From positions 1 to 42,569 of IMG/VR virus record IMGVR_UViG_3300005468_000030: a stretch of DNA of 42,569 nt; one strand, given 5' to 3'. Positions 1,574 to 12,378 of the stretch are shown piece by piece (the first letter of the stretch is position 1; each line of letters starts with the position of its first letter). The position numbers and the translations under genes were made by a program. This stretch comes from a virus. The notes below the pieces were generated by a model. That model saw only the letters and a program-made list of their open reading frames with translations, was not told the origin of the DNA and made no database searches.

Positions 1574-1585
1574 CTATAGAGTGTT

Positions 1586-1659
1586 TTGGCGGCACAGGAC
1601 TTGAACCTGTTACCTACAGTTCCAAAGGACTGTCGCTCTTCCAAATGAGCTAGTCGCCA
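1586..1659 (-). tRNA. tRNA-Gln(TTG)-like, 8-nt anticodon loop
   Basis: On the minus strand: acceptor TGGCGAC/GCCGCCA (one A-C mismatch), D-arm, T-arm ACAGG-TTCAAGT-CCTGT, discriminator A, no encoded CCA. The anticodon stem ACAGT/ACTGT encloses eight bases, CCTTTGGA, one more than normal. U1-A72 and the TTG read after a U favour Gln; Pro(TGG) with an enlarged loop is the alternative. Its 5' end lies two bases after the permuted intron half described next. Confidence 0.75.
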
Positions 1660-1660
1660 A

Positions 1661-1710
1661 CTCAAGTGTCCTGCACCCAGTACCGGCATTTAAAGACGAC
1701 GGTCAATTTC
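1661..1710 (-). ncRNA. 5' half of a circularly permuted group I intron
   Basis: Follows the tRNA 5' exon on the minus strand. The exon end GUU pairs with GAC (1704-1702) across a GAAAUU loop, giving P1 with the U-G wobble required at a group I 5' splice site. AUU in that loop can pair with AAU at the start of the 3' exon (P10). A P2-like hairpin follows. ACUUGA (1667-1662) is complementary over 6 bp to UCAAGU at 1861-1856 in the other half and forms P3. The segment ends two bases before tRNA-Gln, so RNase P cleavage would create its 3' end. Inferred by hand folding. Confidence 0.7.
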
Positions 1711-1787
1711 AACGGTATGACGCTCTGCCGCTGAGCTACCAGCCCACGAAGAGGGCTGGGCAGGATTCGAACCTGCGTCTTCATATT
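1711..1787 (-). tRNA. Permuted tRNA, probable Asn(GTT): 3' half precedes 5' half
   Basis: On the minus strand the 3' half comes first (1787-1753: AA, anticodon strand TATGA, variable AGAC, T-arm GCAGG-TTCGAAT-CCTGC, acceptor CCAGCCC). A 7-base linker TCTTCGT (1752-1746) follows, then the 5' half (1745-1711: acceptor GGGCTGG, D-arm GCTC-AGCGGCA-GAGC, G26, TCATA, CCGTT). Acceptor strands pair 7/7 and anticodon strands 5/5. Joining the halves gives a 70-nt cloverleaf with loop CCGTTAA, anticodon GTT. Oddities are C33 in place of U33 and a U at position 73. A conventional tRNA-Asn(GTT) exists at 9504-9576. Linear reading gives no tRNA. Confidence 0.8.
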
Positions 1788-1942
1788 CGATAGCCGCCGC
1801 CTGGTCGATGCACCAGGCCAGTTTGTTCAGTTATCAGCTTCGAGCAGAAGTCTCAACTTGATCGCCGAACATCTCACCCGGCGTGAATGTTGATCTTCAC
1901 CTTCAGCTTGTGCTCACCCGCTCACGCGGGGGTCTACAGGCT
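1788..1942 (-). ncRNA. 3' half of a circularly permuted group I intron
   Basis: Between the stop of the upstream leftward gene and the tRNA 3' exon. Elements in transcription order: P4 AGCCUGU (1942-1936) with ACAAGCU (1911-1905), one mismatch; P5 CCCGC-GUGA-GCGGG (1930-1917) with a GNRA loop; P6 GUGAA/UUCAC (1900-1883); P7 UGUUCGG (1871-1865) with CUGAACA (1830-1824), 7 bp; 3-nt joint; P3 UCAAGU (1861-1856); P8 UUGAG/CUCGA (1856-1840); P9 CCUGGU/ACCAGG (1817-1800). The intron ends in G (1788), matching the terminal guanosine. Together with the other half it is about 205 nt, the size of compact bacterial tRNA introns. Confidence 0.7.
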
Positions 1943-3268: not shown

Positions 3269-3269
3269 G

Positions 3270-3341
3270 TGCCAACGCCAGGAATCGAACCCGAATCTTC
3301 CGATTTTCAGTCGGACGCTCTCCCATTTGAGCTACGAAGGC
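3270..3341 (-). tRNA. tRNA-Phe(GAA)
   Basis: Anticodon stem TCCGA/TCGGA around loop CTGAAAA gives GAA. D-arm GCTC/GAGC and T-loop TTCGATT are normal; the acceptor GCCTTCG/CGTTGGC has two central mismatches and the T-stem has wobble pairs. Discriminator A, no encoded CCA. It lies apart from the main array. Confidence 0.88.
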
Positions 3342-3344
3342 TTG

Positions 3345-3378
3345 GTCGGCCGCAGGCACCCCCATGACTGCGGCCGAC
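3345..3378. terminator. Hairpin terminator after the lipoprotein operon
   Basis: Perfect 11-bp inverted repeat GTCGGCCGCAG (3345-3355) / CTGCGGCCGAC (3368-3378) with a 12-base loop, 5 bases after the stop of the leftward gene at 3384 and immediately upstream of the tRNA-Phe 5' end. Confidence 0.75.
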
Positions 3379-3383
3379 GTCTA

Positions 3384-4304
3384 CTACTTGGAACCGTTCA
3401 AGATGATGTTACCGCTGGAACCGATGATGATCGTGCACTTGTCGCTGCACGCCTTAATCGCCTCCAACTGCAACTGCGCCAACTGAAGCTTCATCCAAGC
3501 ATCGTTCTTGTACAGGTCGTTCAGCTTCCCAGCCGCATCGACCTTCCCCTGAGCCTCTGCCACCGTCGCAGCGGCCATCTCAATGGCCTTCTGCTTCGCG
3601 TTACGGGCCTCCTGAATACCAGGATCAGCGTAATCGACATCCTTGATCGTGATCTCGATGTCCGGGCAGTCCGGCTTCCGGCGATCATACGACGGGCCAC
3701 AGAAATAGCTGCCACCCACCAGACGCTTCAGCTCAGCCGTGAACTGGGTGGCGATCTTCGCCTGCGCCTCAACACGAACACCGTTGATGTTACCCACCAA
3801 CGCGTCCGCGCTGTAACTACGCACCACGTCCTGGATGACCTTCTCCATCACCGGCACGAACGTCTGCACCAGCATGTTACGCCAGCCGTCAGGGTCCTCG
3901 GCGTCGTAGCGGCGTCCGATCTTCTCCCAGAAGTCCTTCAACAGGGCGCCGTCCGAACCACAGTACGTGTTCAGGAAGAAGTTCGTGGTCGGCCACACGT
4001 TGACCTGAACACCCGACGGCTGATTCTCCTCAGGCTTCGTCGACACCGTGATCGGCTTGTTGCTGTCACCGCCGTCAGCCGCAATGTTCCACGTCCGCAG
4101 CGACGTCGGCAGATACACCACCGAGTTGTTCCATTCGGCGTCGCCGGTCTCCCCCGGCTCGATGCACTTGTCGAACTTGTAGCCGTCCGAGTTGCCTTCC
4201 AGGTAATACAACCCCACCTGGTCCGGGTCAGCGATCGTCGAACAACCCGACAACGCGACACCGGCAGCCAGCAGCAAAGCCGCGATGACCGCAATCTTCT
4301 TCAT
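3384..4304 (-). CDS. SPFH/Band-7 domain lipoprotein
   Basis: 306 residues. Residues 1-20 form a lipoprotein signal (MKKIAVIAALLLAAG then the lipobox ALSGC), so the protein should be lipid-anchored on the outer face of the cytoplasmic membrane. The middle resembles the SPFH/prohibitin-stomatin fold, and residues of about 225-280 (QEARNAKQKAIEMAAATVAE onward) form the Ala/Gln/Glu-rich coiled coil typical after that domain. Role in phage is unknown. It is the last gene of a coupled operon (5572 to 3384), with a terminator after it. The ATG at 4304 is preferred because it places the lipobox at the usual distance. Confidence 0.8.
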   Translation of the reverse strand: MKKIAVIAALLLAAGVALSGCSTIADPDQVGLYYLEGNSDGYKFDKCIEPGETGDAEWNNSVVYLPTSLRTWNIAADGGDSNKPITVSTKPEENQPSGVQVNVWPTTNFFLNTYCGSDGALLKDFWEKIGRRYDAEDPDGWRNMLVQTFVPVMEKVIQDVVRSYSADALVGNINGVRVEAQAKIATQFTAELKRLVGGSYFCGPSYDRRKPDCPDIEITIKDVDYADPGIQEARNAKQKAIEMAAATVAEAQGKVDAAGKLNDLYKNDAWMKLQLAQLQLEAIKACSDKCTIIIGSSGNIILNGSK

Positions 4305-4306
4305 GT

Positions 4307-4426
4307 TCACTCAGGCCCCTTCTTAACCTTGAACATCCATTTCACGAACCTGGCTACGATCGCAGCCAGGAGACCAACCCCGACGATTCCCGTCGCTAGG
4401 GCCAAGAAGATGAACACGCCCTTCAT
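4307..4426 (-). CDS. 39-residue membrane mini-protein
   Basis: One transmembrane helix (about residues 3-25, VFIFLALATGIVGVGLLAAI) followed by a basic tail (RFVKWMFKVKKGPE), giving a predicted inside C-terminus. ATG overlaps the stop of the phosphatase gene, and its own stop lies 2 bases before the lipoprotein ATG, which argues for a real coupled gene despite its size. Confidence 0.6.
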   Translation of the reverse strand: MKGVFIFLALATGIVGVGLLAAIVARFVKWMFKVKKGPE

Positions 4427-4929
4427 GCCGACGCCCCCAGCAGATACCGAACGAAGTGGATGTTGCACAGTGCCCATGGTCCGCGTGCAGCCCGCACCAT
4501 TTCGATGGCCTCACGTGGCGTGTGGCCCATCTCGATCAACGCGAAGCCGACGACAAGCCCGGAACGGTTGTAGCCCGCCTGGCAGCGAACTAGAACCTTA
4601 TCGCCCAGCTGCGTCATCCCGGCGACCTCAAGGGCGAACAGGCGAACCTTAGCCAGCTCAGCCGCCGACAGCAGACCATCAGGAATCCGGTAATGCTCAT
4701 GCCATACGCCTGGATCAGGGCCGTTGCCGTCGTTGTCCCAGAAGAACGAGAACACACGATCGAATTCGTCACGAACCAAAACATGCTGATCTTTGTAGCT
4801 GGCGCCACGCTTCAGCTGGCCGCCCTGCCACAGACCAGGCATAACCTGATCCCAGCCGTTGACCGGCCACGGGATGCCAACCCCAGTAGACGGCGGAATC
4901 AGATCCTCAGGTATGTCGATGTCGGTCAT
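4423..4929 (-). CDS. Dual-specificity/tyrosine-type protein phosphatase
   Basis: 168 residues. The signature CX5R loop is present as VRCQAGYNRSG, with the nucleophile Cys116 and Arg122, followed by the expected helix. A preceding Asp near residue 84 (YRIPDG) is a candidate general acid. Family members hydrolyse phosphotyrosine, phosphoserine/threonine or phosphoinositides. The start overlaps the previous mini-gene stop (ATGA). Lying between two mini membrane proteins and upstream of a Band-7 lipoprotein, it may act at the membrane on host signalling; this is inference. Confidence 0.85.
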   Translation of the reverse strand: MTDIDIPEDLIPPSTGVGIPWPVNGWDQVMPGLWQGGQLKRGASYKDQHVLVRDEFDRVFSFFWDNDGNGPDPGVWHEHYRIPDGLLSAAELAKVRLFALEVAGMTQLGDKVLVRCQAGYNRSGLVVGFALIEMGHTPREAIEMVRAARGPWALCNIHFVRYLLGASA

Positions 4930-5018
4930 CGCGAGAAAGCCCCCGACCACAGCAGCAACATCACTGCCATGAACACGAGAGAGCCCAACAGAGCGGGCAG
5001 GAAATAGCGTGGCATCAT
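4926..5018 (-). CDS. 30-residue membrane mini-protein
   Basis: Sequence starts MMPRYFLPALLG and contains one hydrophobic helix (residues 5-26) with a short basic end. Its ATG overlaps the stop of the 185-residue gene and its TGA overlaps the phosphatase ATG, so it exactly fills the gap in the operon. No homology claim is possible at this length. Confidence 0.55.
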   Translation of the reverse strand: MMPRYFLPALLGSLVFMAVMLLLWSGAFSR

Positions 5019-5572
5019 GACGGGTTCGCGGCCTTTTCACCTAGGTAAGAGAACCGGACAGCGGCGGCGATCTGCTCGAACGACCAGTCCATCGAATCGT
5101 TCGCATTCATAGCCGTAACACCGATTTGTCCATGATCAGAATCAAGGAGCTGGCGCCAGCGGGCCACGACAGGATTCTGGCTATCAAAACCAAGCCACCG
5201 GGCCGTCGCCGCATTCATCACGCTACGATTGACCTCATCTGCGTCTGATGAACCATTCCACATGTAGACACGTTCCTGGAACGGGGCATGAATGGCTGTC
5301 GGATTATGGAACGTCAACGGGTGACAGCACACCACCACCCTCGGCTCCATCGGAACACCGTCGGCAGCCGCCAGAAGGTTCGCCACCTCCAGGCAGCAAA
5401 CCTTCTGGCTGCCGTCCTCTTCGATACGGCACAGACGCTGTTTGCCCTGCTGATAGTTGCCTGATTCGAGGGCCTCAACCCACAGGCGCACGCGATCCAA
5501 GTTCAAGCTGGGCTGAACCTCGGACTCCAACAGCGGCACCAACTGGTCCAAGAACTCTTGATCAACAGCCAT
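5015..5572 (-). CDS. Hypothetical protein, first gene of phosphatase/Band-7 operon
   Basis: 185 residues, soluble, with a cysteine pair (VCCLEV and VVVCCHP). I do not recognise the family. It begins 26 bases after the terminator hairpin at 5598-5631 and overlaps the next mini-gene. Ribosome site GGGGGAAGGG precedes the start. Confidence 0.65.
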   Translation of the reverse strand: MAVDQEFLDQLVPLLESEVQPSLNLDRVRLWVEALESGNYQQGKQRLCRIEEDGSQKVCCLEVANLLAAADGVPMEPRVVVCCHPLTFHNPTAIHAPFQERVYMWNGSSDADEVNRSVMNAATARWLGFDSQNPVVARWRQLLDSDHGQIGVTAMNANDSMDWSFEQIAAAVRFSYLGEKAANPS

Positions 5573-5597
5573 CTACCCTTCCCCCTCTCCGAGAGAA

Positions 5598-5631
5598 CCC
5601 CGTGGCCTTAGTGCTAGCTGAGGCCACGGGG
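5598..5631 (-). terminator. Hairpin terminator after the AAA+ gene
   Basis: Perfect 11-bp repeat CCCCGTGGCCT (5598-5608) / AGGCCACGGGG (5621-5631), loop of 12, downstream of the stop at 5652 on the minus strand. Confidence 0.8.
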
Positions 5632-5651
5632 AGAACAACTAGACCCAGCCG

Positions 5652-7163
5652 TTACTTGCCGCCGTGGCCGTTGACAGCCACCAGCGTGCCGTCGCCGTCG
5701 ACCTCCACGCGGTGCTCACGCAGCGTCGAACCGAAGTGCTTCTTCAACGCCTCGCCCACCGAATCGATGTTCGACGCCAGAGGCGCATCCTCCATCATCT
5801 TCACCTGCGTCCGGATACCGTTCGCAGCATCCACCAGATCACTGGTGGTGATGACCTGCGGGACGCCGCCGGAACGGGCAATCGCGTACCGCTGTGCCCG
5901 GTCGATGGCTTCCTTCGCGAAAGCCGGAAGCAGGCCGTCGAACCCAGCCGCCACCGCCTTCCAGTCCAGATCCTCCGACCGCAGAAGCTCCGGTACCGTC
6001 GCCTCCACCAGCCGACGGACACCGCCAGCATCCAAGCCGCCCAGCTCGATGACAGCGTCGAGACGACCCGGCCGCATCATGCCCCGGTGCAGCTTGTCAG
6101 GGTGGTTGGTGGTGAACAGCGCCATCACCTCCACGCCCTTGTTGGTGACACCGTCGAGAACATCCAGCAGATGTGCGACGCCTTCGGTGTGGCTGGTCTT
6201 GATGACGTCGATGTCCTCGAACATCACCACAGCCGGTGCGTACACCTGCGCGGTCTTCAACGCCCCGTACAGGTCGTCTTCGGGGCGCACCTGGATGTAG
6301 GTGAACCCGTTGGCTTCGGCCTGCTGTGCGGTGAGCATCCCAGCGAGGGTCTTGCCGGTACCGTACGGCCCGTACAGCAGCACCTGCCGCTTGATCGGCA
6401 GGCCGGTGGCCCGCAGCGCATCCGTGTACTTGATCGCCGACCAGACGTTGGCGTCGAGCTGACGCATCACCTCGTCGGAGTAGATCACCTTCGACGGGTC
6501 GACGGTCTTCGTGTTCAGGAACATCGGCACTTGGGCGGCGGTGATGGCCTTGCCCCGGTAGATCGACGTCTGCTTCAGCTCGTCTTCGATGACCTGGAAG
6601 AACGCCTCGATGTGGGACCGGTACTTCTTCGGTGCTTGCACCGAAAGATAGAACACGGGACCCAGTTCGGGGTTCATGGTTCCGTTGAGGGTGAACGTGG
6701 CGTCGAGCGGTTTGAACCCGACCCGTCCCCACGGAACCTGCATGGTCTCGTTGTGGCTGATGTTGATCGTCTCGTACTGCGGCGGGTACTGGCCGAAGAA
6801 GGTGCGGGTGACCTTGCCGATGCCAGTGGTGCCAAACAGGCGCTTCATGCCCCGGTCGAACGCGGCGGCGCCGTCCCACGGCCGGAACTTGAACTCGCGG
6901 CCGTATTCGTAGGTTTCCTCCTGCGCCTCCTGCCAGTCCTCCAGGTAGCTGATGGCGTCTTCGACGCGGCCCTGCATGTTGGCGGGGAGGATGAACTTGG
7001 TTCCCTCGAAGACGAGGGCGTCGTCCTGGACCCGCAGGCCGCCGAGCTTGCTGAGGGTGGAGAGGATTTCTTCCTGAAGCTTCTGGTTCTCGGTCTTCTC
7101 GGCAGCCTTGGCGCTTACGGCTTCCGCTGTGGCCTTGGCGAGGATTTCTTTGATGCCGTCCAT
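5652..7163 (-). CDS. AAA+ ATPase
   Basis: 503 residues. An N-terminal region with coiled-coil character is followed by a AAA+ module: Walker A GPYGTGKT (265-272), Walker B VVMFEDID (312-319), sensor-1 TTNH (351-354) and the RPGRLD arginine-finger motif (364-369), as in classical AAA (FtsH/Cdc48-like) ATPases. No protease or nuclease domain is attached. Such proteins unfold or remodel protein substrates; the substrate is unknown. It has its own promoter (7201-7228) and terminators on both sides, so it is a one-gene unit. Confidence 0.9.
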   Translation of the reverse strand: MDGIKEILAKATAEAVSAKAAEKTENQKLQEEILSTLSKLGGLRVQDDALVFEGTKFILPANMQGRVEDAISYLEDWQEAQEETYEYGREFKFRPWDGAAAFDRGMKRLFGTTGIGKVTRTFFGQYPPQYETINISHNETMQVPWGRVGFKPLDATFTLNGTMNPELGPVFYLSVQAPKKYRSHIEAFFQVIEDELKQTSIYRGKAITAAQVPMFLNTKTVDPSKVIYSDEVMRQLDANVWSAIKYTDALRATGLPIKRQVLLYGPYGTGKTLAGMLTAQQAEANGFTYIQVRPEDDLYGALKTAQVYAPAVVMFEDIDVIKTSHTEGVAHLLDVLDGVTNKGVEVMALFTTNHPDKLHRGMMRPGRLDAVIELGGLDAGGVRRLVEATVPELLRSEDLDWKAVAAGFDGLLPAFAKEAIDRAQRYAIARSGGVPQVITTSDLVDAANGIRTQVKMMEDAPLASNIDSVGEALKKHFGSTLREHRVEVDGDGTLVAVNGHGGK

Positions 7164-7200
7164 GTTTTTCCCTTCACTGGAGCATCTTGGTTCGTACGGA

Positions 7201-7228
7201 AGTGTAGCAGACGATGCGGGTATGTCAA
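7201..7228 (-). promoter_or_regulatory. Promoter of the AAA+ gene
   Basis: Minus strand -35 TTGACA (7228-7223) and -10 TACACT (7206-7201) with a 16-base spacer; GC precedes the -10 box. The -35 box abuts the terminator hairpin at 7229-7261. Confidence 0.65.
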
Positions 7229-7261
7229 AGGGGCCTGTTTCTTGGGAACGGTCAGGCCCCT
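7229..7261 (-). terminator. Terminator at the end of the tRNA-array transcript
   Basis: Perfect 9-bp repeat AGGGGCCTG (7229-7237) / CAGGCCCCT (7253-7261). On the minus strand it follows the stop of the gene at 7317 and should stop read-through from the tRNA array before the AAA+ promoter. Confidence 0.75.
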
Positions 7262-7316
7262 ACCACCGTCAGCCAGCAGCCACGCCATCATCCGGACGCG
7301 TGACTGCCCCAAGCCT

Positions 7317-7559
7317 CTAATCGCCGCGAAGAATCTCCGCAGCCTTACGAATCGTGGCCTCCATGTCGCCAGCCATAACTTCAGGCTGCCGCAACACTTC
7401 AAGCGCCTGAGCGATAACCAGCTCAGCCAACGCCTCAGCCCGTTGAAGCAACCTGATTTGCCCGGCCTGCGCCAAGACCACTTCCACCAGGTTCCTCTTC
7501 GAGAGGTCCATCAGCTCAGAAGCTGTCAGACCGTGACTCTGATCAATCACGGATCCCAT
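7317..7559 (-). CDS. Helical hypothetical protein
   Basis: 80 residues, almost entirely predicted alpha-helical (LSKRNLVEVVLAQAGQIRLL onward), no cysteine. The ATG at 7559 overlaps the upstream stop as TAATG. Last gene of the leftward array. No family recognised. Confidence 0.6.
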   Translation of the reverse strand: MGSVIDQSHGLTASELMDLSKRNLVEVVLAQAGQIRLLQRAEALAELVIAQALEVLRQPEVMAGDMEATIRKAAEILRGD

Positions 7560-7918
7560 TACTGGTCCTCGTGGTTGGGGCAACCGTGCCAGTGCTTCTC
7601 GATTATCGCCCAGTTCACGCCATGATCCGGCCGCTGCCAGTCATATAGACCATCCTCAGGAAAACCGAAATCTTCCTCCGGATACTTGGCCCTAGCCTCA
7701 GCCAGATCCCGTTCATCCCAGGCCAGCATCCAGCCGGTCACAGCCTCATCCTCATGATCACGCAGGCTGGCCAACGCATGACATGGCGCACAGCAGATCG
7801 GGCAGCAGCCCTCGCACTCCTCACCGTCAACATGATCACAACTGAGAATATGATCATTGATGATCCCGGCCATCAACTGCACCAACGCATGACCAATACC
7901 ACTACTTGTTGCATCCAT
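7559..7918 (-). CDS. Cys-rich small protein, probable metal binding
   Basis: 119 residues. A dense Cys/His cluster lies at residues 27-48 (CDHVDGEECEGCCPICCAPCH) with paired CxxC motifs, suggesting zinc or iron-sulphur binding; the remainder is acidic with many Trp. It begins two bases before the tRNA-Cys 3' end region. Function unknown. Confidence 0.65.
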   Translation of the reverse strand: MDATSSGIGHALVQLMAGIINDHILSCDHVDGEECEGCCPICCAPCHALASLRDHEDEAVTGWMLAWDERDLAEARAKYPEEDFGFPEDGLYDWQRPDHGVNWAIIEKHWHGCPNHEDQ

Positions 7919-7919
7919 G

Positions 7920-7991
7920 AGACCCTAGCGAGAATCGAACTCGCGTACCAGGATTTGCAATCCTGTGCCTCAACCTCTCGGCCATAGGGTC
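7920..7991 (-). tRNA. tRNA-Cys(GCA)
   Basis: Acceptor GACCCTA/TAGGGTC perfect, anticodon loop TTGCAAA in stem CAGGA/TCCTG, T-arm GCGAG/CTCGC, discriminator U as expected for Cys. Confidence 0.95.
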
Positions 7992-7995
7992 CTTG

Positions 7996-8080
7996 CGGAG
8001 GGCAAAGGGATTGAACCTCTGTGCGGTCACCCGCAGCCATGGCTTAGCAAGCCAGCCCATTACCACTCTGGCAGCCCTCC
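7996..8080 (-). tRNA. tRNA-Ser(GCT)
   Basis: Type II tRNA with a long variable arm (GCGG..CCGC), acceptor GGAGGGC, anticodon loop TTGCTAA, discriminator G. Confidence 0.93.
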
Positions 8081-8090
8081 AACACTTACG

Positions 8091-8173
8091 CGGAGGGTGA
8101 AGGAGTCGAACCCTCAGCTTTCACACTGGCACGGTTTTCAAGACCGCTTCCCGACCAACCGGGGCCACCCTCC
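8091..8173 (-). tRNA. tRNA-Ser(TGA)
   Basis: Acceptor GGAGGGT/ACCCTCC perfect, loop CTTGAAA in stem GCGGT/ACCGT, long variable arm, discriminator G. Confidence 0.92.
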
Positions 8174-8185
8174 ATATTCAATTGG

Positions 8186-8257
8186 GGTGACTGCCCGGAT
8201 TCGAACCGGGACCTCCGCAGTCACAGTGCGGCGCTCTGCCATTGAGCTACAACCACC
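8186..8257 (-). tRNA. tRNA-His(GTG)
   Basis: Loop CTGTGAC in stem CCGCA/TGCGG. An extra G at -1 opposite C73 is present, the hallmark of tRNA-His. Confidence 0.95.
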
Positions 8258-8258
8258 A

Positions 8259-8402
8259 AGTATGCGAATCATCCCTATCGCATGTTTCAGGCCCACCCGT
8301 ACCGCGCCTGATTCTTACTGCCCGAGCTTAGAGGTGACAGATCATGTCTCGGTGTAGGTTCCGCCTAGGGTACTCCCTGCTAGTGTCACTGCTTTCCTTA
8401 CG
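8259..8402 (-). ncRNA. Structured spacer RNA between tRNA-His and tRNA-Tyr
   Basis: 144 bases without a gene. Three separate perfect 6-bp stems can form: GTGACA/TGTCAC (8334-8339 with 8384-8389, enclosing an AGGG-AGTA-CCCT hairpin), TCAGGC/GCCTGA (8287-8292 with 8306-8311) and ATGCGA/TCGCAT (8262-8267 with 8278-8283). It does not fold as a tRNA and carries no credible reading frame. Confidence 0.5.
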
Positions 8403-8480
8403 TGGGCGTAGATGGAATCGAACCACCCATACCGAAGTAACCGGTTTACAGCCGGTCTGAGGACCACCCTCAATACGCCC
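8403..8480 (-). tRNA. tRNA-Tyr(GTA)
   Basis: Acceptor GGGCGTA/TACGCCC perfect, loop CTGTAAA in stem ACCGG/CCGGT, extra variable arm as in bacterial Tyr, discriminator A. Confidence 0.95.
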
Positions 8481-8486
8481 AAGCAT

Positions 8487-8645
8487 TCAATTATCGCGGG
8501 CTTCAAGCCTGCCTTCGCGCCGCTCACGGCGCCGCATCTGCCGCTTAATACCCGACGTGACGCCCGGTCGCTGTAGATAAGTCAAATACCGTCGCCAACT
8601 AGTGACAGTATCCACCTCAGCCGCTGTTTTGCTCTGCCTTTTCAT
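8487..8645 (-). CDS. 52-residue basic protein
   Basis: Starts MKRQSKTAAEVDTV and ends in a strongly basic helix (KRQMRRRERREGR), suggesting nucleic-acid binding. The ATG begins one base after the discriminator of tRNA-Glu(CTC), with no ribosome site, so after tRNA processing the message would be leaderless. Function unknown. Confidence 0.5.
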   Translation of the reverse strand: MKRQSKTAAEVDTVTSWRRYLTYLQRPGVTSGIKRQMRRRERREGRLEARDN

Positions 8646-8646
8646 G

Positions 8647-8720
8647 TAACGCCAGCGGGACTCGAACCCGCAACCTCCTGATTGAGAATCAGGTGAGCTA
8701 ACCAATTGCTCCATGGCGTC
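8647..8720 (-). tRNA. tRNA-Glu(CTC)
   Basis: Anticodon loop TTCTCAA in stem CCTGA/TCAGG, T-arm GCGGG-TTCGAGT-CCCGC, acceptor GACGCCA/TGGCGTT. Confidence 0.9.
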
Positions 8721-8728
8721 AAGCCCTG

Positions 8729-9001
8729 CTACCCCTGACCAGAATACTGGCAGTATTCACAGTTTTTTGCGTGCCGACGGTTCGCCTCATCCGCCGCCAA
8801 ACGAATCAGCATTCCCTTAATCTGACCCGGCGCAATTTCACGCAGACTGGCAACGAACTGCTGCGACGCTTCCATTTTTTCTTCAGGAGGCAAATGGAAT
8901 GCGACTAGAATGGCTTCAACAATCGCATCGATACCAGCATCGATCAAAGTTGACATGAACTGCATTTCCAGCTCATGCTTGTCTTCCTCGCTGATGTTCA
9001 T
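8729..9001 (-). CDS. Small helical protein with C-terminal CxxC
   Basis: 90 residues: acidic N-terminus, hydrophobic helices (IDAIVEAILVAF), and a C-terminal CEYCQY pair. The start at 9001 follows GGGGA about 5 bases upstream and lies 14 bases after tRNA-Glu(TTC). The helical body and C-terminal CxxC recall the neighbouring gene at 9098-9400, so the two may be distant paralogues. Function unknown. Confidence 0.6.
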   Translation of the reverse strand: MNISEEDKHELEMQFMSTLIDAGIDAIVEAILVAFHLPPEEKMEASQQFVASLREIAPGQIKGMLIRLAADEANRRHAKNCEYCQYSGQG

Positions 9002-9014
9002 CTCAATCCCCACG

Positions 9015-9088
9015 TGACCTCGACGGGGTTCGAACCCGTAACCGCCAGAGTGAAAGTCTGGAGAGCTAACCAATTGCTCCACGAGGCC
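9015..9088 (-). tRNA. tRNA-Glu(TTC)
   Basis: Loop CTTTCAC in stem CCAGA/TCTGG, acceptor GGCCTCG/CGAGGTC (one wobble), T-arm ACGGG-TTCGAAC-CCCGT, discriminator A. Confidence 0.93.
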
Positions 9089-9097
9089 ATATTCGAT

Positions 9098-9400
9098 TTA
9101 CTCGGTCTTACAGTTACAGCATTTCTTGCAAATATCGCAGTCGTCTTTGTCGTGGGCGATATTGACGAGGTCGCCTGCCATGGAAATCATGAGACCAATG
9201 ACGAGAAGCGGGGGCATCTCTTTAATCTTCATGATCATTTCTTCGGCGGCGTTCTCCCGAACAGCATCATCCTTAATATGAGTGATCAAATCGAACGTCG
9301 CCAGAATATTCATCGCCACCTCTTCAGTGGTAGCGATCTTAAACATCACATCCAACTCTTCGCCGTCCGCAACACTCAACCCAAGGCTGCCGAAATCCAT
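9098..9400 (-). CDS. Small protein with hydrophobic segment and Cys-rich tail
   Basis: 100 residues. A hydrophobic stretch (MPPLLVIGLMISMAGDLV) is followed by DCDICKKCCNCK, a likely metal site. GGGGAG five bases before the ATG at 9400 fixes the start. Similar plan to the gene at 8729-9001; function unknown. Confidence 0.6.
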   Translation of the reverse strand: MDFGSLGLSVADGEELDVMFKIATTEEVAMNILATFDLITHIKDDAVRENAAEEMIMKIKEMPPLLVIGLMISMAGDLVNIAHDKDDCDICKKCCNCKTE

Positions 9401-9423
9401 CAAACTCCCCTTCCCCTTCTACG

Positions 9424-9497
9424 TGCCCCCGGCAGGATTCGAACCTGCGACCCGCTGATTAAAAGTCAGCTGCTGCTAACCACTGAGCTACGAAGGC
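9424..9497 (-). tRNA. tRNA-Lys(TTT)
   Basis: Loop CTTTTAA in stem GCTGA/TCAGC, T-arm GCAGG/CCTGC; the acceptor GCCTTCG/CGGGGGC relies on G-U pairs. Discriminator A. Confidence 0.92.
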
Positions 9498-9503
9498 ATA
9501 ACG

Positions 9504-9576
9504 CTGACATGGCTGGATTCGAACCAGCATCCCCCGGATTAACAGTCCAGTGCTCTACCAATTAAGCTACACGCCA
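9504..9576 (-). tRNA. tRNA-Asn(GTT)
   Basis: Loop CTGTTAA in stem CTGGA/TCCGG, T-arm GCTGG/CCAGC, discriminator G. A normal linear counterpart of the permuted Asn-type tRNA at 1711-1787. Confidence 0.92.
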
Positions 9577-9578
9577 AT

Positions 9579-9648
9579 GGTGGACCCCCCAGGATTCAAT
9601 CCCTACCAGTACCATGGTGTTGGCCGGGGAGCCCATGACCTAGCCACC
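9579..9648 (-). pseudogene. Degenerate tRNA-like element
   Basis: 70 bases, tRNA length. GGTGG at one end pairs with CCACC at the other; GGTC/GGCC can form a D-stem around an 11-base loop with GGG; a weak ACCA/TGGT anticodon stem follows; the T-loop ATTGAAT lacks the C of TTCGAAT and its stem has mismatches. Probably a decayed tRNA; an alternative fold pairs TTGGCC with GGCCAA. Confidence 0.4.
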
Positions 9649-9671
9649 GCGAATGGCCAAGTGGTACACCG

Positions 9672-9744
9672 CTCCGGGGCAGGGAATCGAACCCCAATCA
9701 CCTGAACCAAGGTCAGGCATCCTACCCATTTAGACGAACCCGGA
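9672..9744 (-). tRNA. tRNA-Gln(TTG)
   Basis: Stem CCTGA/TCAGG around loop CCTTGGT gives TTG, with C33. U1-A72 and discriminator G match Gln identity, and the D-arm resembles that of the adjacent tRNA-Gln(CTG). Confidence 0.82.
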
Positions 9745-9749
9745 AAGCG

Positions 9750-9820
9750 CTCCGAGACAGAGATTCGAACTCCAATTAGCTGATTCAGAATCAGCCGTCT
9801 TGCCATTAGACGATCTCGGA
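9750..9820 (-). tRNA. tRNA-Gln(CTG)
   Basis: Acceptor TCCGAGA/TCTCGGA perfect, loop TTCTGAA in stem GCTGA/TCAGC, discriminator G. Confidence 0.94.
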
Positions 9821-9841
9821 ATAGTATTCAATTAAGAATCG

Positions 9842-9912
9842 AGCCCGGAAGCGGAATTGAACCGCTATCGACTGCATGGCAAGCAGCCGTGTTGCCGTTA
9901 CACCACCCGGAC
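9842..9912 (-). tRNA. tRNA-Gly(GCC)
   Basis: Loop TTGCCAT in stem GCTGC/GCAGT, T-arm AGCGG/CCGCT, discriminator U as usual for bacterial Gly. Confidence 0.93.
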
Positions 9913-9974
9913 AATGGGCCGGTACCGCTGCCCCTCAACCATTCCCTCAAATAGTTAAAACGGTACCGGCCTCG

Positions 9975-10045
9975 CCCGGACTAGAGGAATCGAACCCCTG
10001 TCTGCCGCTTTGGAGACGGCCGTGTTACCACTACACCAAGCCCGA
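9975..10045 (-). tRNA. tRNA-Trp(CCA)
   Basis: Loop CTCCAAA in stem GCCGT/GCGGC, T-arm AGGGG/CCTCT, discriminator G. Confidence 0.93.
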
Positions 10046-10051
10046 AAGAAA

Positions 10052-10210
10052 TCACATCGCCGAATTGAAAGCCGCCACATCGTAGGGTTCCACCGACTTA
10101 TCGCCATCTACGATGCGGTTGACAATCGCCAACACCTGTTCGTCAGAAAGATTCTCCAACGAAACCTCGCCCACCTCATCCAACGTTCGGCTGACATCGG
10201 TTGCCGTCAT
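10052..10210 (-). CDS. 52-residue acidic protein
   Basis: Reads MTATDVSRTLDEVGEVSLEN onward to FNSAM. A strong TAGGAGG ribosome site 9 bases before the ATG supports it as a real gene. It ends 7 bases before tRNA-Trp. No domain recognised. Confidence 0.65.
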   Translation of the reverse strand: MTATDVSRTLDEVGEVSLENLSDEQVLAIVNRIVDGDKSVEPYDVAAFNSAM

Positions 10211-10223
10211 GGACAGTTACCTC

Positions 10224-10478
10224 CTAGTAGGCGCCGAGCCGGTTCCAAGCGATAGCCAGCTCCCGGTACGCGGCAGCCTGATCATGAAGACCAGCATCCA
10301 CCGCAGCCTCAGCCTTCGTCAACAGTCGCTTTCCGGCTTCGATGATGGTACCGGCCTGGGCTGCTTGAAGCTGCTTGATGACCCGCCACGGATCAGCAGC
10401 GTCAGTAGACGTTTCCGCCGCAATCGCCGCCTCCGCTTCCCGTAGATCGTCGTCGATGTCACGCGGCACCTCGGTCAT
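10224..10478 (-). CDS. 84-residue helical protein
   Basis: Acidic N-terminus (MTEVPRDIDDDLREAEAAI), then Ala/Glu-rich helices that look like a tetratricopeptide-type or coiled-coil bundle. GGGGAGG nine bases upstream favours the ATG at 10478; an ATG at 10532, 8 bases after tRNA-Ala, would add 18 residues. Unknown function. Confidence 0.55.
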   Translation of the reverse strand: MTEVPRDIDDDLREAEAAIAAETSTDAADPWRVIKQLQAAQAGTIIEAGKRLLTKAEAAVDAGLHDQAAAYRELAIAWNRLGAY

Positions 10479-10539
10479 CTCCCGAGCCTCCCCTTCACTG
10501 AGCAGCCTGAAACTGCCATCAGGATATTGCATTCTCACG

Positions 10540-10612
10540 TGGACCCACGAGGACTCGAACCCCGCACCCCCGGTGTGCAAAACCGGCGCTCTACCAGATG
10601 AGCTATGAGCCC
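10540..10612 (-). tRNA. tRNA-Ala(TGC)
   Basis: Loop TTTGCAC in stem CCGGT/ACCGG, acceptor GGGCTCA/TGGGTCC, discriminator A. Confidence 0.94.
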
Positions 10613-10620
10613 CTGTTAGA

Positions 10621-10824
10621 TTAACTGTCTCGCGGCACTAGCATCACAACAAGATCATGACCCAAAGCGTCCGCGATACGTTCAAGCGTATCCAGGCGAG
10701 GCAACGGCTTTCCGCGCTCCCAATCCGAAATCGCCGTGAAATGGCCACCAATCAATTCGGCCATTGCCTCCTGCGACAAGCCACGAAAATGACGTGCTTT
10801 ACGGATTTCAGCGCCAACATCCAT
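10621..10824 (-). CDS. XRE-family HTH regulator
   Basis: 67 residues. Classical Cro/CI-type helix-turn-helix: AEIRKARHFRGLSQEAMAEL, then HFTAISDWERGKPLPRLDTLERIA with the WERG motif of the XRE fold. It fills the whole protein. Directly downstream of a DUF397 gene, a pairing common in actinomycetes, where the HTH protein controls the pair. Confidence 0.88.
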   Translation of the reverse strand: MDVGAEIRKARHFRGLSQEAMAELIGGHFTAISDWERGKPLPRLDTLERIADALGHDLVVMLVPRDS

Positions 10825-10840
10825 CACAATCCGTCTTCTG

Positions 10841-11032
10841 CTACAGGTCGAACTCGCCGCCCTTAACGGCGGCAACGAACACCGACCATTCCTTCTCCGT
10901 GAAGATCAGCTTCCCGCCGTCAGGATTCTTCGAATCCCGAACCGCAACCATTCCGCCGCCCAACGGCATCGCCTCAACGCAGGCACCCTGATTACTCGAC
11001 TCAGCCGCCTTCGTCCACACACCAGCCTTCAC
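10841..11032 (-). CDS. DUF397 domain protein
   Basis: 63 residues. The DUF397 pattern is clear: W-TKAAESSNQGACVEA, GGGMVAVRDSKNPDGGKLIF, then TEKEWSVFVAAVKGGEFDL. An AAGGAGG site fixes a GTG start at 11032; a longer GTG frame to 11059 would run into tRNA-Gly. In actinobacteria DUF397 proteins pair with XRE regulators, and some pairs behave as toxin-antitoxin-like or developmental switches. Here the XRE partner follows after 16 bases. Confidence 0.88.
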   Translation of the reverse strand: MKAGVWTKAAESSNQGACVEAMPLGGGMVAVRDSKNPDGGKLIFTEKEWSVFVAAVKGGEFDL

Positions 11033-11051
11033 TGCATCCTCCTTCGAGAAG

Positions 11052-11122
11052 AGCCCCACGCCGGAATCGAACCGGCATACCCTGATTGGAAATCAAGTGC
11101 TCTGCCATTGAGCTAGTAAGGC
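11052..11122 (-). tRNA. tRNA-Gly(TCC)
   Basis: Loop TTTCCAA in stem CTTGA/TCAGG, T-arm GCCGG/CCGGC, discriminator U. Confidence 0.93.
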
Positions 11123-11132
11123 ATTCACTGCG

Positions 11133-11204
11133 CGCCCCATGCCGGGATCGAACCGGCGACCTCCTGATCGACAATCAGGTGCTCTCCCATTGAGCTAATG
11201 GAGC
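11133..11204 (-). tRNA. tRNA-Asp(GTC)
   Basis: Loop TTGTCGA in stem CCTGA/TCAGG, acceptor GCTCCAT/ATGGGGC, discriminator G. Confidence 0.94.
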
Positions 11205-11208
11205 CCAG

Positions 11209-11280
11209 TACCCCAAGCCAGTCGTGAGCTGACATCTCCCTGTTTATCAGACAGGGGCTTTAACATTAAGCTATCGGGGC
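11209..11280 (-). tRNA. tRNA-Ile(GAT), aberrant T-loop
   Basis: Acceptor GCCCCGA/TTGGGGT, loop CTGATAA in stem CCTGT/ACAGG. The T-stem GTCAG/CTGGC is intact but the T-loop reads CTCACGA in place of TTCRANY, so the usual T-loop/D-loop contact would be altered. Confidence 0.82.
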
Positions 11281-11285
11281 TTGAA

Positions 11286-11360
11286 CCGTCACGCAGCTTA
11301 CCAAAGGACTCCCATCCTCATAGCGGTTCGCTTAGATTAGGTGGATCTTTAACGTGACGG
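11286..11360 (-). ncRNA. Structured RNA, copy A of a two-copy family
   Basis: 75 bases closed by a perfect 8-bp stem CCGTCACG/CGTGACGG. Inside is an AGAT/ATCT hairpin with a 7-base loop, then the conserved core AAGCRAACCRCTATGRGGAT, then GGTRAGCTGCGTG. It shares this architecture and sequence with 11819-11892, with a U-A to C-G change in the closing stem. The conserved GCACAACCCGYCACGTT extends 7 bases further upstream. Not a canonical tRNA. Confidence 0.65.
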
Positions 11361-11396
11361 GTTGTGCGTATTCATGAAGCAACCCGAACCGGGTCG

Positions 11397-11470
11397 AGCC
11401 TTCACCAGGAATTGAACCCGGAACCGTCCGCTTACAAGGCGGATGCTCTACCAAATTGAGCTATGAAGGC
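11397..11470 (-). tRNA. tRNA-Thr(TGT)
   Basis: Acceptor GCCTTCA/TGAAGGC perfect, loop CTTGTAA in stem TCCGC/GCGGA, T-loop TTCAATT. Confidence 0.94.
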
Positions 11471-11488
11471 GTATGCAGTTGTGTTGCG

Positions 11489-11561
11489 TGCCCCCGGCAG
11501 GAGTCGAACCTGCGCGCATCCCGCTAAGAACGGGCAGCTCTGGCCTCTGAGCTACGAAGGC
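11489..11561 (-). tRNA. tRNA-Lys(CTT)
   Basis: Loop TTCTTAG in stem GCCCG/CGGGA (terminal pair mismatched), T-arm GCAGG/CCTGC, acceptor GCCTTCG/CGGGGGC with G-U pairs, discriminator A. Confidence 0.88.
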
Positions 11562-11565
11562 GTAA

Positions 11566-11659
11566 CGGGAAGGCGCCGGACATTGGCATGCCCCAGGGGC
11601 TCCGGTCTCTTCCGTGATCACTTTCTATCCCACAGCCACCACAGCAGTGGGCCTTCCCG
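11566..11659 (-). ncRNA. Stem-closed structured RNA between tRNA-Lys and tRNA-Arg
   Basis: 94 bases closed by a perfect 9-bp stem CGGGAAGGC/GCCTTCCCG. Inside are CCAC-TGCT-GTGG and a CCGGA/TCCGG stem enclosing a GCCC/GGGC hairpin, forming a three-way junction. No tRNA landmarks and no reading frame. Confidence 0.5.
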
Positions 11660-11733
11660 CACCCCTGACAGGATTCGAACCTGCCACCCCCTCATCCGTA
11701 GTGAGGTGCTCTAATCCGCTGAGCTACAGAGGC
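11660..11733 (-). tRNA. tRNA-Arg(ACG)
   Basis: Loop CTACGGA in stem CCTCA/TGAGG, T-arm GCAGG-TTCGAAT-CCTGT, discriminator G. A34 would need deamination to inosine by a host TadA. Confidence 0.93.
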
Positions 11734-11738
11734 TTGCG

Positions 11739-11812
11739 TACCCCACCTGCGAGTCGAACGCAGACACACCAGATCTTGAATCCGGCCGCTTTGCCTTTTT
11801 GCGTAGTGGGGC
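11739..11812 (-). tRNA. tRNA-Leu(CAA), short variable arm
   Basis: Loop TTCAAGA in stem CCGGA/TCTGG; T-arm CTGCG/CGCAG; acceptor GCCCCAC/GTGGGGT. The variable region is only about 5 bases, unlike the long arm of bacterial tRNA-Leu, so charging identity is less certain. Confidence 0.82.
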
Positions 11813-11818
11813 TTAATA

Positions 11819-11892
11819 CCGCCACGCAGCTCACCGAGGGCCGTTAATCCCCATAGTGGTTTGCTTCAGCGTGGGATGCTTGAACGTGGCGG
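11819..11892 (-). ncRNA. Structured RNA, copy B of a two-copy family
   Basis: 74 bases closed by CCGCCACG/CGTGGCGG (8 bp). Same order as copy A at 11286-11360: hairpin with a 7-base loop (AGC/GCT, extended by TTC/GAA), core AAGCAAACCACTATGGGGAT, then GGTGAGCTGCGTG. A GGAC-GAAA-GTCC hairpin lies just upstream (11907-11918 region). Confidence 0.65.
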
Positions 11893-11923
11893 GTTGTGCT
11901 GGTCTCCCGTGGACTTTCGTCCG

Positions 11924-11996
11924 TAGCGTCGCAGGGACTTGAACCCCGAACCCGCACTTTGTAAGAGTGCTGCTCTCCCAATTGAGCTACAACGCC
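11924..11996 (-). tRNA. tRNA-Val(TAC)
   Basis: Loop CTTACAA in stem GCACT/AGTGC, acceptor GGCGTTG/CGACGCT, discriminator A. Confidence 0.93.
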
Positions 11997-12006
11997 AAGT
12001 GTTGCG

Positions 12007-12080
12007 TAGCCCCCGAGCGATTCGAACGCTCAATCACCAGTACCTAAAGCTGGCGGCTTTGCCATTTTGCCTAGGGAGCC
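12007..12080 (-). tRNA. tRNA-Leu(TAG), short variable arm
   Basis: Loop TTTAGGT in stem CCAGC/ACTGG, T-arm GAGCG/CGCTC, discriminator A. Again no long variable arm, as in the other Leu tRNA. Confidence 0.83.
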
Positions 12081-12083
12081 AAG

Positions 12084-12149
12084 GCGCACAGAGGCTGGAC
12101 CAACGCACCCTAAACTCGATAAGGGATAGGTGTGTGTTGCTCTGTGCGC
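12084..12149 (-). ncRNA. Stem-closed structured RNA between tRNA-Leu and tRNA-Met
   Basis: 66 bases closed by a perfect 10-bp stem GCGCACAGAG/CTCTGTGCGC. An inner CACC/GGTG stem holds a CCCT/AGGG hairpin. No T-loop or anticodon arm. It differs in sequence from copies A and B. Confidence 0.5.
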
Positions 12150-12153
12150 TTCG

Positions 12154-12226
12154 TGGCGGGAGTGGGATTTGAACCCACAACTTCCAGATTATGAGCCTGG
12201 CGTGCTACCGAGTTGCACCATCCCGC
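12154..12226 (-). tRNA. tRNA-Met(CAT)
   Basis: Loop CTCATAA in stem CCAGG/TCTGG, acceptor GCGGGAT/TCCCGCC. G1-C72 pairs, so it is not a typical initiator; a lysidine-modified Ile(CAT) cannot be excluded. Confidence 0.88.
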
Positions 12227-12227
12227 T

Positions 12228-12305
12228 AAGTTTGGTGGCGTCCTACCACTAGACCAGATCGAGTTTTACCTCGACCCCAGGGATTCGAACCCTGGCCCTC
12301 CCCCG
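12228..12305 (-). tRNA. Second permuted tRNA-like locus, Gln-type ends
   Basis: On the minus strand a 3' half (T-arm CAGGG-TTCGAAT-CCCTG, acceptor GGGTCGA, G73) comes before a 5' half (acceptor TCGATCT, D-arm GTCT-AGTGGTA-GGAC, G26, CCACC). About 7 bases (GTAAAAC) link them. The acceptor strands pair 7/7 with two wobbles, and U1-A72/G73 are Gln-like. Anticodon strands CCACC/GGGGG pair 4/5, and no normal anticodon loop can be assembled. The flanking tRNA-Pro and tRNA-Met leave no room for an intron. May be a scrambled remnant. Confidence 0.5.
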
Positions 12306-12378
12306 TCGGGAACGTAGGCGTCGAACCTACCAGTGTCCTGCTCCCAAAGCAGGCGGCCCACCCCGAGCCCTGTTCCCG
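12306..12378 (-). tRNA. tRNA-Pro(TGG)
   Basis: Acceptor CGGGAAC/GTTCCCG perfect, loop TTTGGGA in stem CCTGC/GCAGG, T-arm GTAGG/CCTAC, discriminator A. First tRNA behind the array promoter. Confidence 0.94.

What the first reader, a model, noticed from the sequence alone, without database searches (positions are those of the whole stretch)
12228..12305. Second permuted tRNA-like locus without an intron
A T-arm/3'-acceptor half lies upstream of a D-arm/5'-acceptor half; the acceptor strands are complementary and closed by a short linker, the same order as at 1711-1787. It is squeezed between tRNA-Pro and tRNA-Met, so RNase P and 3' processing of neighbours would release it as a nicked cloverleaf open at the anticodon. 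No normal anticodon can be built. It may be a remnant of tandem duplication, or a precursor or relic of permutation.
Basis: partly seen in the sequence, partly recalled or inferred. Interest (0 to 1): 0.72.

Follow-up and report, generated by a model that had tools for sequence, protein, structure and literature searches.

The report
Anticodon-less tRNA mimic between phage tRNAs
A virus of bacteria carries, squeezed between two ordinary transfer-RNA genes, a short tRNA look-alike with its halves in reversed order, no anticodon and a sealed amino-acid end; it resembles the tRNA-mimicking part of bacterial Y RNAs without their protein-binding stem, and similar look-alikes sit in other phages' tRNA arrays.

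Summary
On the minus strand, 12304-12228 holds a T-arm/3'-acceptor half, a 6-nt linker and a 5'-acceptor/D-arm half (acceptor 7/7 pairs, D stem 4/4, anticodon stem 4/5), abutting tRNA-Pro and tRNA-Met. Dinucleotide shuffles gave no such arrangement (0 of 300).

"Permuted tRNA" is not the best frame. The same order is the tRNA-mimic domain of bacterial Y RNAs (YrlA, RF02553). The twin at 1711-1787 matches YrlA (47.6 bits, below the gathering score); the finding does not, as it lacks the Ro60-binding basal stem. Many viral contigs, and cultured phages such as BRock, Myrna and A3Wally, carry full Y-type versions, often with Ro60-like genes.

The stemless form recurs: 15 modules in 13 viral records start within 4 nt of an upstream tRNA or module. 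Their anticodon stems pair 5/5 in 8 of 15, against 4.3% for mismatched halves, yet no anticodon loop is encoded. One module is present or absent between two close relatives. At this site, the nearest distinct relative keeps tRNA-Pro/tRNA-Met but lacks the module.

Best reading: a stemless Y-type tRNA mimic released by tRNA processing. Its function (decoy?) is inferred; decay remains possible.

The parts
12228..12305 (-). the finding: stemless, acceptor-closed, anticodon-less permuted tRNA module
12300..12304 (-). 3' strand of the anticodon-like stem (GGGGG)
   Evidence: pairs 4/5 with 12234-12238
12278..12294 (-). T-arm with TTCGAAT loop, 5-bp stem (6 with an extra C-G)
12270..12276 (-). 3' acceptor strand GGTCGAG
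   Evidence: 7/7 pairs with 12257-12263
12264..12269 (-). linker GTAAAA closing the acceptor hairpin; no CCA
12257..12263 (-). 5' acceptor strand CTCGATC
12240..12254 (-). D-arm GTCT-AGTGGTA-GGAC
   Evidence: 4/4 pairs; A14, G15, G18G19, A21 present; C48 present
12234..12238 (-). 5' strand of the anticodon-like stem (CCACC)
12228..12233 (-). 6-nt tail AAACTT up to tRNA-Met
12305..12378 (-). upstream tRNA-Pro (TGG)
   Evidence: ARAGORN; Infernal only 22.9 bits
12153..12227 (-). downstream tRNA-Met (CAT)
1693..1800 (-). twin locus: YrlA-type Y RNA with basal stem
   Evidence: RF02553 47.6 bits, E 7.6e-10, whole model 1-114, below gathering 69

Best explanation
The locus encodes a stemless Y-RNA-type tRNA mimic: the T-arm / closed acceptor / D-arm domain of a YrlA-like RNA without its Ro60-binding basal stem, carried as a cassette inside a phage tRNA array. 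Shown: the anatomy, the absence of an anticodon loop, the abutting tRNAs, the recurrence of the same form in other phage arrays, and gain or loss of a single module between relatives. Inferred: co-transcription with the array; 3' processing of tRNA-Pro and RNase P at tRNA-Met release a roughly 77-nt RNA nicked at the anticodon end; the sealed acceptor with no CCA keeps it out of aminoacylation and translation; with an intact elbow (U8, A14, G15-C48, G18G19, TTC, A58) it can occupy tRNA-binding proteins, most likely as a decoy or competitor for tRNA-recognising enzymes. I put the architecture and family resemblance at about 0.85 and active function as a mimic at about 0.45.
For: Anatomy. The twin in the same phage is a YrlA-type RNA. 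The same core with a basal stem is widespread in phages: 60 distinct loci (the window's two included) from contigs brought in by pattern scans; Ro60-like genes (TROVE or DUF7788) lie in 16 of 36 records tested, the window and its near-twin being negative. Stemless form: 15 of 116 distinct permuted candidates begin within 4 nt of an upstream tRNA or module, e.g. Pro-module-Ala with linker gtaa in L366, Phe-module-Asn in L352, tandem pairs in L030 and L354. Their anticodon stems pair 5/5 in 8 of 15 against 4.3% of 210 non-cognate combinations (binomial 6e-8); 0 of 5000 strand swaps reach the observed pairing, also with one module per contig. Y48 is C or T in 15 of 15. In L480/L484, 4 of 7 differences fall in the 7-nt linker (P 0.001) and both acceptor changes keep pairing; L484 carries one extra 73-nt module with the same fold. 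The same pattern scan gave stemless modules in 9 of 120 viral loci and 0 of 114 loci from bacterial and archaeal genomes.
Against: YrlA's covariance model does not report this locus at E 10 in a 381-base search or at E 1 genome-wide. The nearest distinct relative lacks the module at the same site, so there is no site conservation; the near-identical relative (99.25% around it) is uninformative. The fold is not unusually stable. The anticodon stem has an A-G mismatch. No Ro60-like gene was found in the window or its near-twin, and only 2 of 12 other stemless records had one. Three of the 15 stemless modules have poor anticodon stems (one of these, L030 at 2042, pairs 5/5 if a 6-nt variable loop is allowed). 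No expression data.
Confidence: 0.52

Rival explanations
1. A decayed Y RNA or dead cassette: once a full YrlA-type RNA (or a stemless copy), now without function, kept only by recent ancestry.
For: Absent at the same site in G033; no Ro60-like gene in the contigs; mismatch in the anticodon stem; ordinary folding energy.
Against: All tertiary-core positions checked (U8, A14, G15-C48, G18G19, A21, TTC, A58) and 7/7 acceptor, 4/4 D, 5/5 T pairs are intact, though some of these were detection rules; stemless modules recur with paired anticodon stems in other arrays.
Confidence: 0.27
2. Remnant of a tandem duplication of an ordinary tRNA whose outer halves were deleted.
For: Complementary acceptor and a D-arm of Glu/Gln/Gly type fit a tRNA source; best matches of the 5' half among 947 fetched tRNAs are phage tRNA-Thr, -Gly and -Pro.
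Against: No source tRNA found: the re-joined linear order has no match covering 80% in 50,697 phage records, only T-arm pieces at E of 0.6 or worse in the rows listed; deletion would have had to stop at both stem strands, and the same end points recur in unrelated arrays.
Confidence: 0.11
3. A circularly permuted tRNA gene as in red algae and archaea: ends ligated, circle opened at the linker, giving a decoding tRNA.
For: Gene order; a 7-nt loop would be possible by joining AAACTT to the C before GGGGG.
Against: That loop lacks U33 and a usable anticodon; in other stemless modules the flanks (0-4 nt upstream; 0-15 nt or far more downstream) do not give a constant 7-nt loop; no bulge-helix-bulge flanks; no RNA ligase among 28 ORFs scanned against PHROGs or Pfam, a partial scan of a fragment.
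Confidence: 0.05
4. A processing spacer: a tRNA-shaped insulator that helps RNase P and 3' nucleases find the ends of tRNA-Pro and tRNA-Met.
For: Exact abutment to both neighbours; G033 has another compact two-hairpin spacer of similar size (68 nt, z -2.60) in the same place.
Against: Several tRNA pairs in the array have spacers of only a few bases, so a folded spacer is not needed; does not explain retention of the tertiary core.
Confidence: 0.05

Closest known systems
YrlA / bacterial Y RNA tRNA-mimic domain (Rfam RF02553)
   Same: Order T-arm, 3' acceptor, loop, 5' acceptor, D-arm, with ends meeting at the anticodon position; intact elbow nucleotides
   Different: No basal Ro60-binding stem; no CM match; abuts tRNAs on both sides; no Ro60-like gene found in the contig
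Circularly permuted tRNA genes (Cyanidioschyzon merolae, Thermofilum; PMC3978253, passages read)
   Same: 3' half before 5' half with a short intervening sequence (1-74 nt there, 6 nt here)
   Different: No anticodon can be rebuilt, no BHB motif, virus of bacteria
Permuted two-piece tmRNA (PMC11915505, passages read)
   Same: Permuted gene cut by tRNA-processing enzymes into pieces held by pairing, without ligation
   Different: Has a full D-arm, no tag reading frame, 77 nt only
Phage-array tRNAs resistant to anticodon nucleases (PMC10264068, passages read)
   Same: Phage tRNA-array setting and a possible role against tRNA-cutting defence
   Different: Those are decoding tRNAs with altered loops; this has no loop at all

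Membership tests
YrlA Y RNA (RF02553) | covariance-model match to the family | tested here: not met
   not reported at E<=10 locally nor at E<=1 genome-wide; the twin 1693-1800 scores 47.6 bits, under the gathering score 69
YrlA Y RNA (RF02553) | T-arm, closed acceptor hairpin, D-arm in this order | tested here: met
   7/7 acceptor, 5/5 T, 4/4 D pairs
YrlA Y RNA (RF02553) | long basal stem of 5' and 3' ends that binds Ro60/Rsr | tested here: not met
   0 nt upstream and 6 nt downstream before the flanking tRNAs; flank duplex z -1.3, made of tRNA sequence
YrlA Y RNA (RF02553) | Ro60/TROVE-type gene nearby | tested here: inconclusive
   none in the 42.6-kb window or the 48.7-kb near-twin, but both records may be fragments
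YrlA Y RNA (RF02553) | binds Rsr and PNPase; modified by TruB and a Dus enzyme | not testable with these tools
   stated for YrlA in PMC8394870 (passage)
Circularly permuted tRNA gene | joined halves give a 7-nt anticodon loop with U33 | tested here: not met
   no U33 or normal anticodon
Circularly permuted tRNA gene | BHB motif at the junction for a splicing endonuclease | tested here: not met
   flanks are tRNA-Pro and tRNA-Met; by inspection
Ordinary tRNA gene | called by ARAGORN or RF00005 | tested here: not met
   only a T-arm fragment at 14.0 bits
Permuted tmRNA | reduced D region and tag reading frame | tested here: not met
   full D-arm, 77 nt in all; no tmRNA match

The most novel reading that the evidence does not exclude
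Phages carry a class of anticodon-less, acceptor-sealed tRNA mimics as cassettes inside their tRNA arrays, cut out by ordinary tRNA processing, which act as decoys for host tRNA-targeting enzymes (anticodon nucleases, modification or decay enzymes): a Ro60-independent offshoot of Y RNAs. [quoted passage not shown]
Probability: 0.22. Interest if true: 0.8.

Novelty: new variant of a known kind. Interest (0 to 1): 0.56.

Why it matters
Y RNAs of bacteria and phages are known, but tRNA finders miss permuted modules and the Rfam YrlA model misses this stemless one, so such RNAs lie unannotated even in published phage genomes. A recurring tRNA mimic without basal stem, anticodon or free acceptor, gained and lost as a unit inside phage tRNA arrays, offers a testable link between tRNA arrays, Y RNAs and defence systems that attack tRNA.

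Tried and rejected
Group I intron, permuted intron-exon or ribozyme flanks: considered because many contigs showed conserved helices beside the permuted core; no intron family matched in 15 loci, and the helices turned out to be the basal stem of Y RNAs once cultured phages showed TROVE/DUF2828 genes next door. The idea that the halves in other phages are spliced at positions 28/29 (note) was dropped for the same reason. Scoring by covariance model was rejected as proof for this locus, because tandem ordinary tRNAs score as high. My first acceptor control (part) used a wrong 3' offset and is replaced. The MAFFT alignment of the 15 stemless modules blurs the acceptor and was not used for pair counts; one search stopped with a script error after printing one line, and one search replaced it. 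Acceptor pairing is circular (it was a selection rule); only the anticodon stem counts there, and the choice between a 4- and 5-nt variable loop favours pairing a little (the control makes the same choice). L338's second module (5/5) and L484's second module were not among the 15, because the script missed them. For the L030 module at 2042 I allowed a 6-nt variable loop only.

Full report
What is there. The 77 bases between tRNA-Pro and tRNA-Met (minus strand) contain a T-arm with its 3' acceptor strand, a 6-nt linker and a 5' acceptor strand with a D-arm. The acceptor strands pair 7/7, the T stem 5/5 (6 with an extra C-G, so 13 bp in the coaxial stack instead of the usual 12), the D stem 4/4, and the two strands at the anticodon position 4/5. 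ARAGORN and the Rfam tRNA model call neither half. No such arrangement arises in 300 dinucleotide shuffles, and only 7 of 702 non-cognate acceptor combinations of the window's own tRNAs pair 7/7. The folding energy is ordinary.

What the twin is. The other permuted locus on this contig matches the Y-RNA family YrlA over the whole model (1693-1800, 47.6 bits, E 7.6e-10, below the curated 69). A review describes YrlA as a tRNA-like domain on a basal stem that holds the Ro60-like protein Rsr (PMC8394870, passage). The finding's locus gives no YrlA match. It has the mimic domain but no basal stem, since its ends meet tRNA-Pro and tRNA-Met.

How common the core is. Many carry flanking strands that pair into a two-part basal stem. 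Of 78 loci examined, 33 had a flank duplex at z -2 or lower; the test missed stems that I could see by eye, so it probably understates them. Ro60-type genes (TROVE 8 of 36 records, DUF7788 9 of 36, together 16 of 36) lie in the same records; both near-identical contigs of the finding are negative. The 36 were the window, its near-twin, four cultured phages and 30 contigs that I picked from those with a permuted core. In four cultured phages an unannotated match lies near a TROVE or DUF2828/DUF7788 gene; my script re-found the permuted core in two of them, BRock and KP13-26. Myrna, Phabba and A3Wally have TROVE and permuted cores; GodonK, Phendrix and Fryberger have cores without a TROVE match. 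Phage Y RNAs as such are in print: PMC12282133 and PMC7765460 mention them (passages); the first cites Chen et al. 2014, which is not held here.

Stemless modules are a recurring sub-class. In one search the loci with a tRNA closely upstream mostly have 36-52 nt between (room for a basal strand); the exceptions are this finding (0 nt), L030 (2 nt) and L084 (17 nt). Two further scans for T-arms too close to belong to two full tRNAs (both truncated) and the script give 116 distinct permuted candidates, 15 of them starting within 4 nt of an upstream tRNA or module, in 13 records including the window. Examples: Phe-module-Asn, Pro-module-Ala (linker gtaa), Leu-module-Ile, and two modules in tandem between Lys and Trp and between Gln and Asn. 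Anticodon stems pair 5/5 in 8 of 15 and 4/5 in 4 of 15; mismatched combinations give 4.3% and 34.3% of 210. No strand swap in 5000 reaches the observed number, also with one module per contig and without the window. No anticodon loop is encoded. The same pattern on bacterial and archaeal genomes gave 0 stemless modules in 114 loci against 9 in 120 viral loci.

Evolution. L480 and L484 are two related phages with the same module after tRNA-Asn; before the module the alignment shows five differences in about 130 columns. Within 71 positions of the module they differ at 7: 4 in the 7-nt linker, 2 in the acceptor that keep pairing, 1 in the D-loop. L484 has one more 73-nt unit that folds the same way and is cleanly absent from L480. 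At the finding's own site, G033 (65% identical major head protein) keeps tRNA-Pro and tRNA-Met, but its 68-nt spacer holds two unrelated hairpins. The near-twin contig is 99.25% identical around the locus, so its identity there says nothing. The module here is lineage-specific.

Mechanism. Shown by sequence: sealed acceptor, no CCA, no anticodon, intact elbow nucleotides, exact fit between tRNAs. Inferred: release by processing of the neighbours as a nicked cloverleaf, exclusion from aminoacylation and decoding, binding to tRNA-recognising proteins. A decoy role is the reading I would bet on among functional ones; PMC7790460 raises competitive inhibition of an anticodon nuclease by the YrlA mimic (passage). 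Ro60 dependence is unlikely for this form: 2 of 12 other stemless records carry TROVE or DUF7788, though fragments limit this.

Novelty. Searches for permuted tRNA with phage, circularly permuted tRNA, YrlA, and Y RNA with phage or tRNA cluster (listings and passages only) showed no report of stemless permuted tRNA modules in phage arrays. The library holds open-licence papers only, and the main Y RNA papers are not in it, so this is weak evidence of absence. I rate the finding a new variant of a known kind.

Noticed in passing
1585-1660 (-): tRNA with an apparent 8-nt anticodon loop (CCTTTGGA), which ARAGORN calls tRNA-???; a possible four-base or frameshifting Pro-type tRNA next to the YrlA locus.
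   Followed up: no
3269-12378 (-): The 26 ordinary tRNA calls on this contig cover all 20 amino acids.
   Followed up: no
L071, L080, L081, L100, L103, L117 and others: Many phage Y-type RNAs carry a complete 7-nt anticodon loop with U33 and A37/A38 on the 3' side, e.g. CTTTTAA or CTTGTAA, so the mimic can be a full cloverleaf; the YrlA model as printed has no such hairpin.
   Followed up: partly
L012 7573-7787, also L053: Permuted modules nested inside the anticodon stem of another tRNA-like sequence (TCGTC..GACGA), so that two tRNA shapes share one transcript.
   Followed up: partly
L125 6004 and 6357 (phage BRock), L127 6004 and 6147 (phage KP13-26), L126 and L128 (Vibrio phages): Unannotated Y-type RNA candidates near TROVE or DUF2828/DUF7788 genes in published phage genomes.
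   Followed up: partly
L267 771-838: In the relative G033 the tRNA-Pro/tRNA-Met spacer folds into two hairpins under a closing stem (z -2.60), unlike any tRNA.
   Followed up: no
L030 2306-2384: tmRNA model match of 57.8 bits over only 79 nt, behind the tandem stemless modules: possibly a tag-less tmRNA-like RNA.
   Followed up: no
11439-11523 (-) and 11093-11167 (-): Ordinary tandem tRNAs score 28 bits with YrlA and up to 45 bits with my permuted-core model, a trap for model-based searches.
   Followed up: yes
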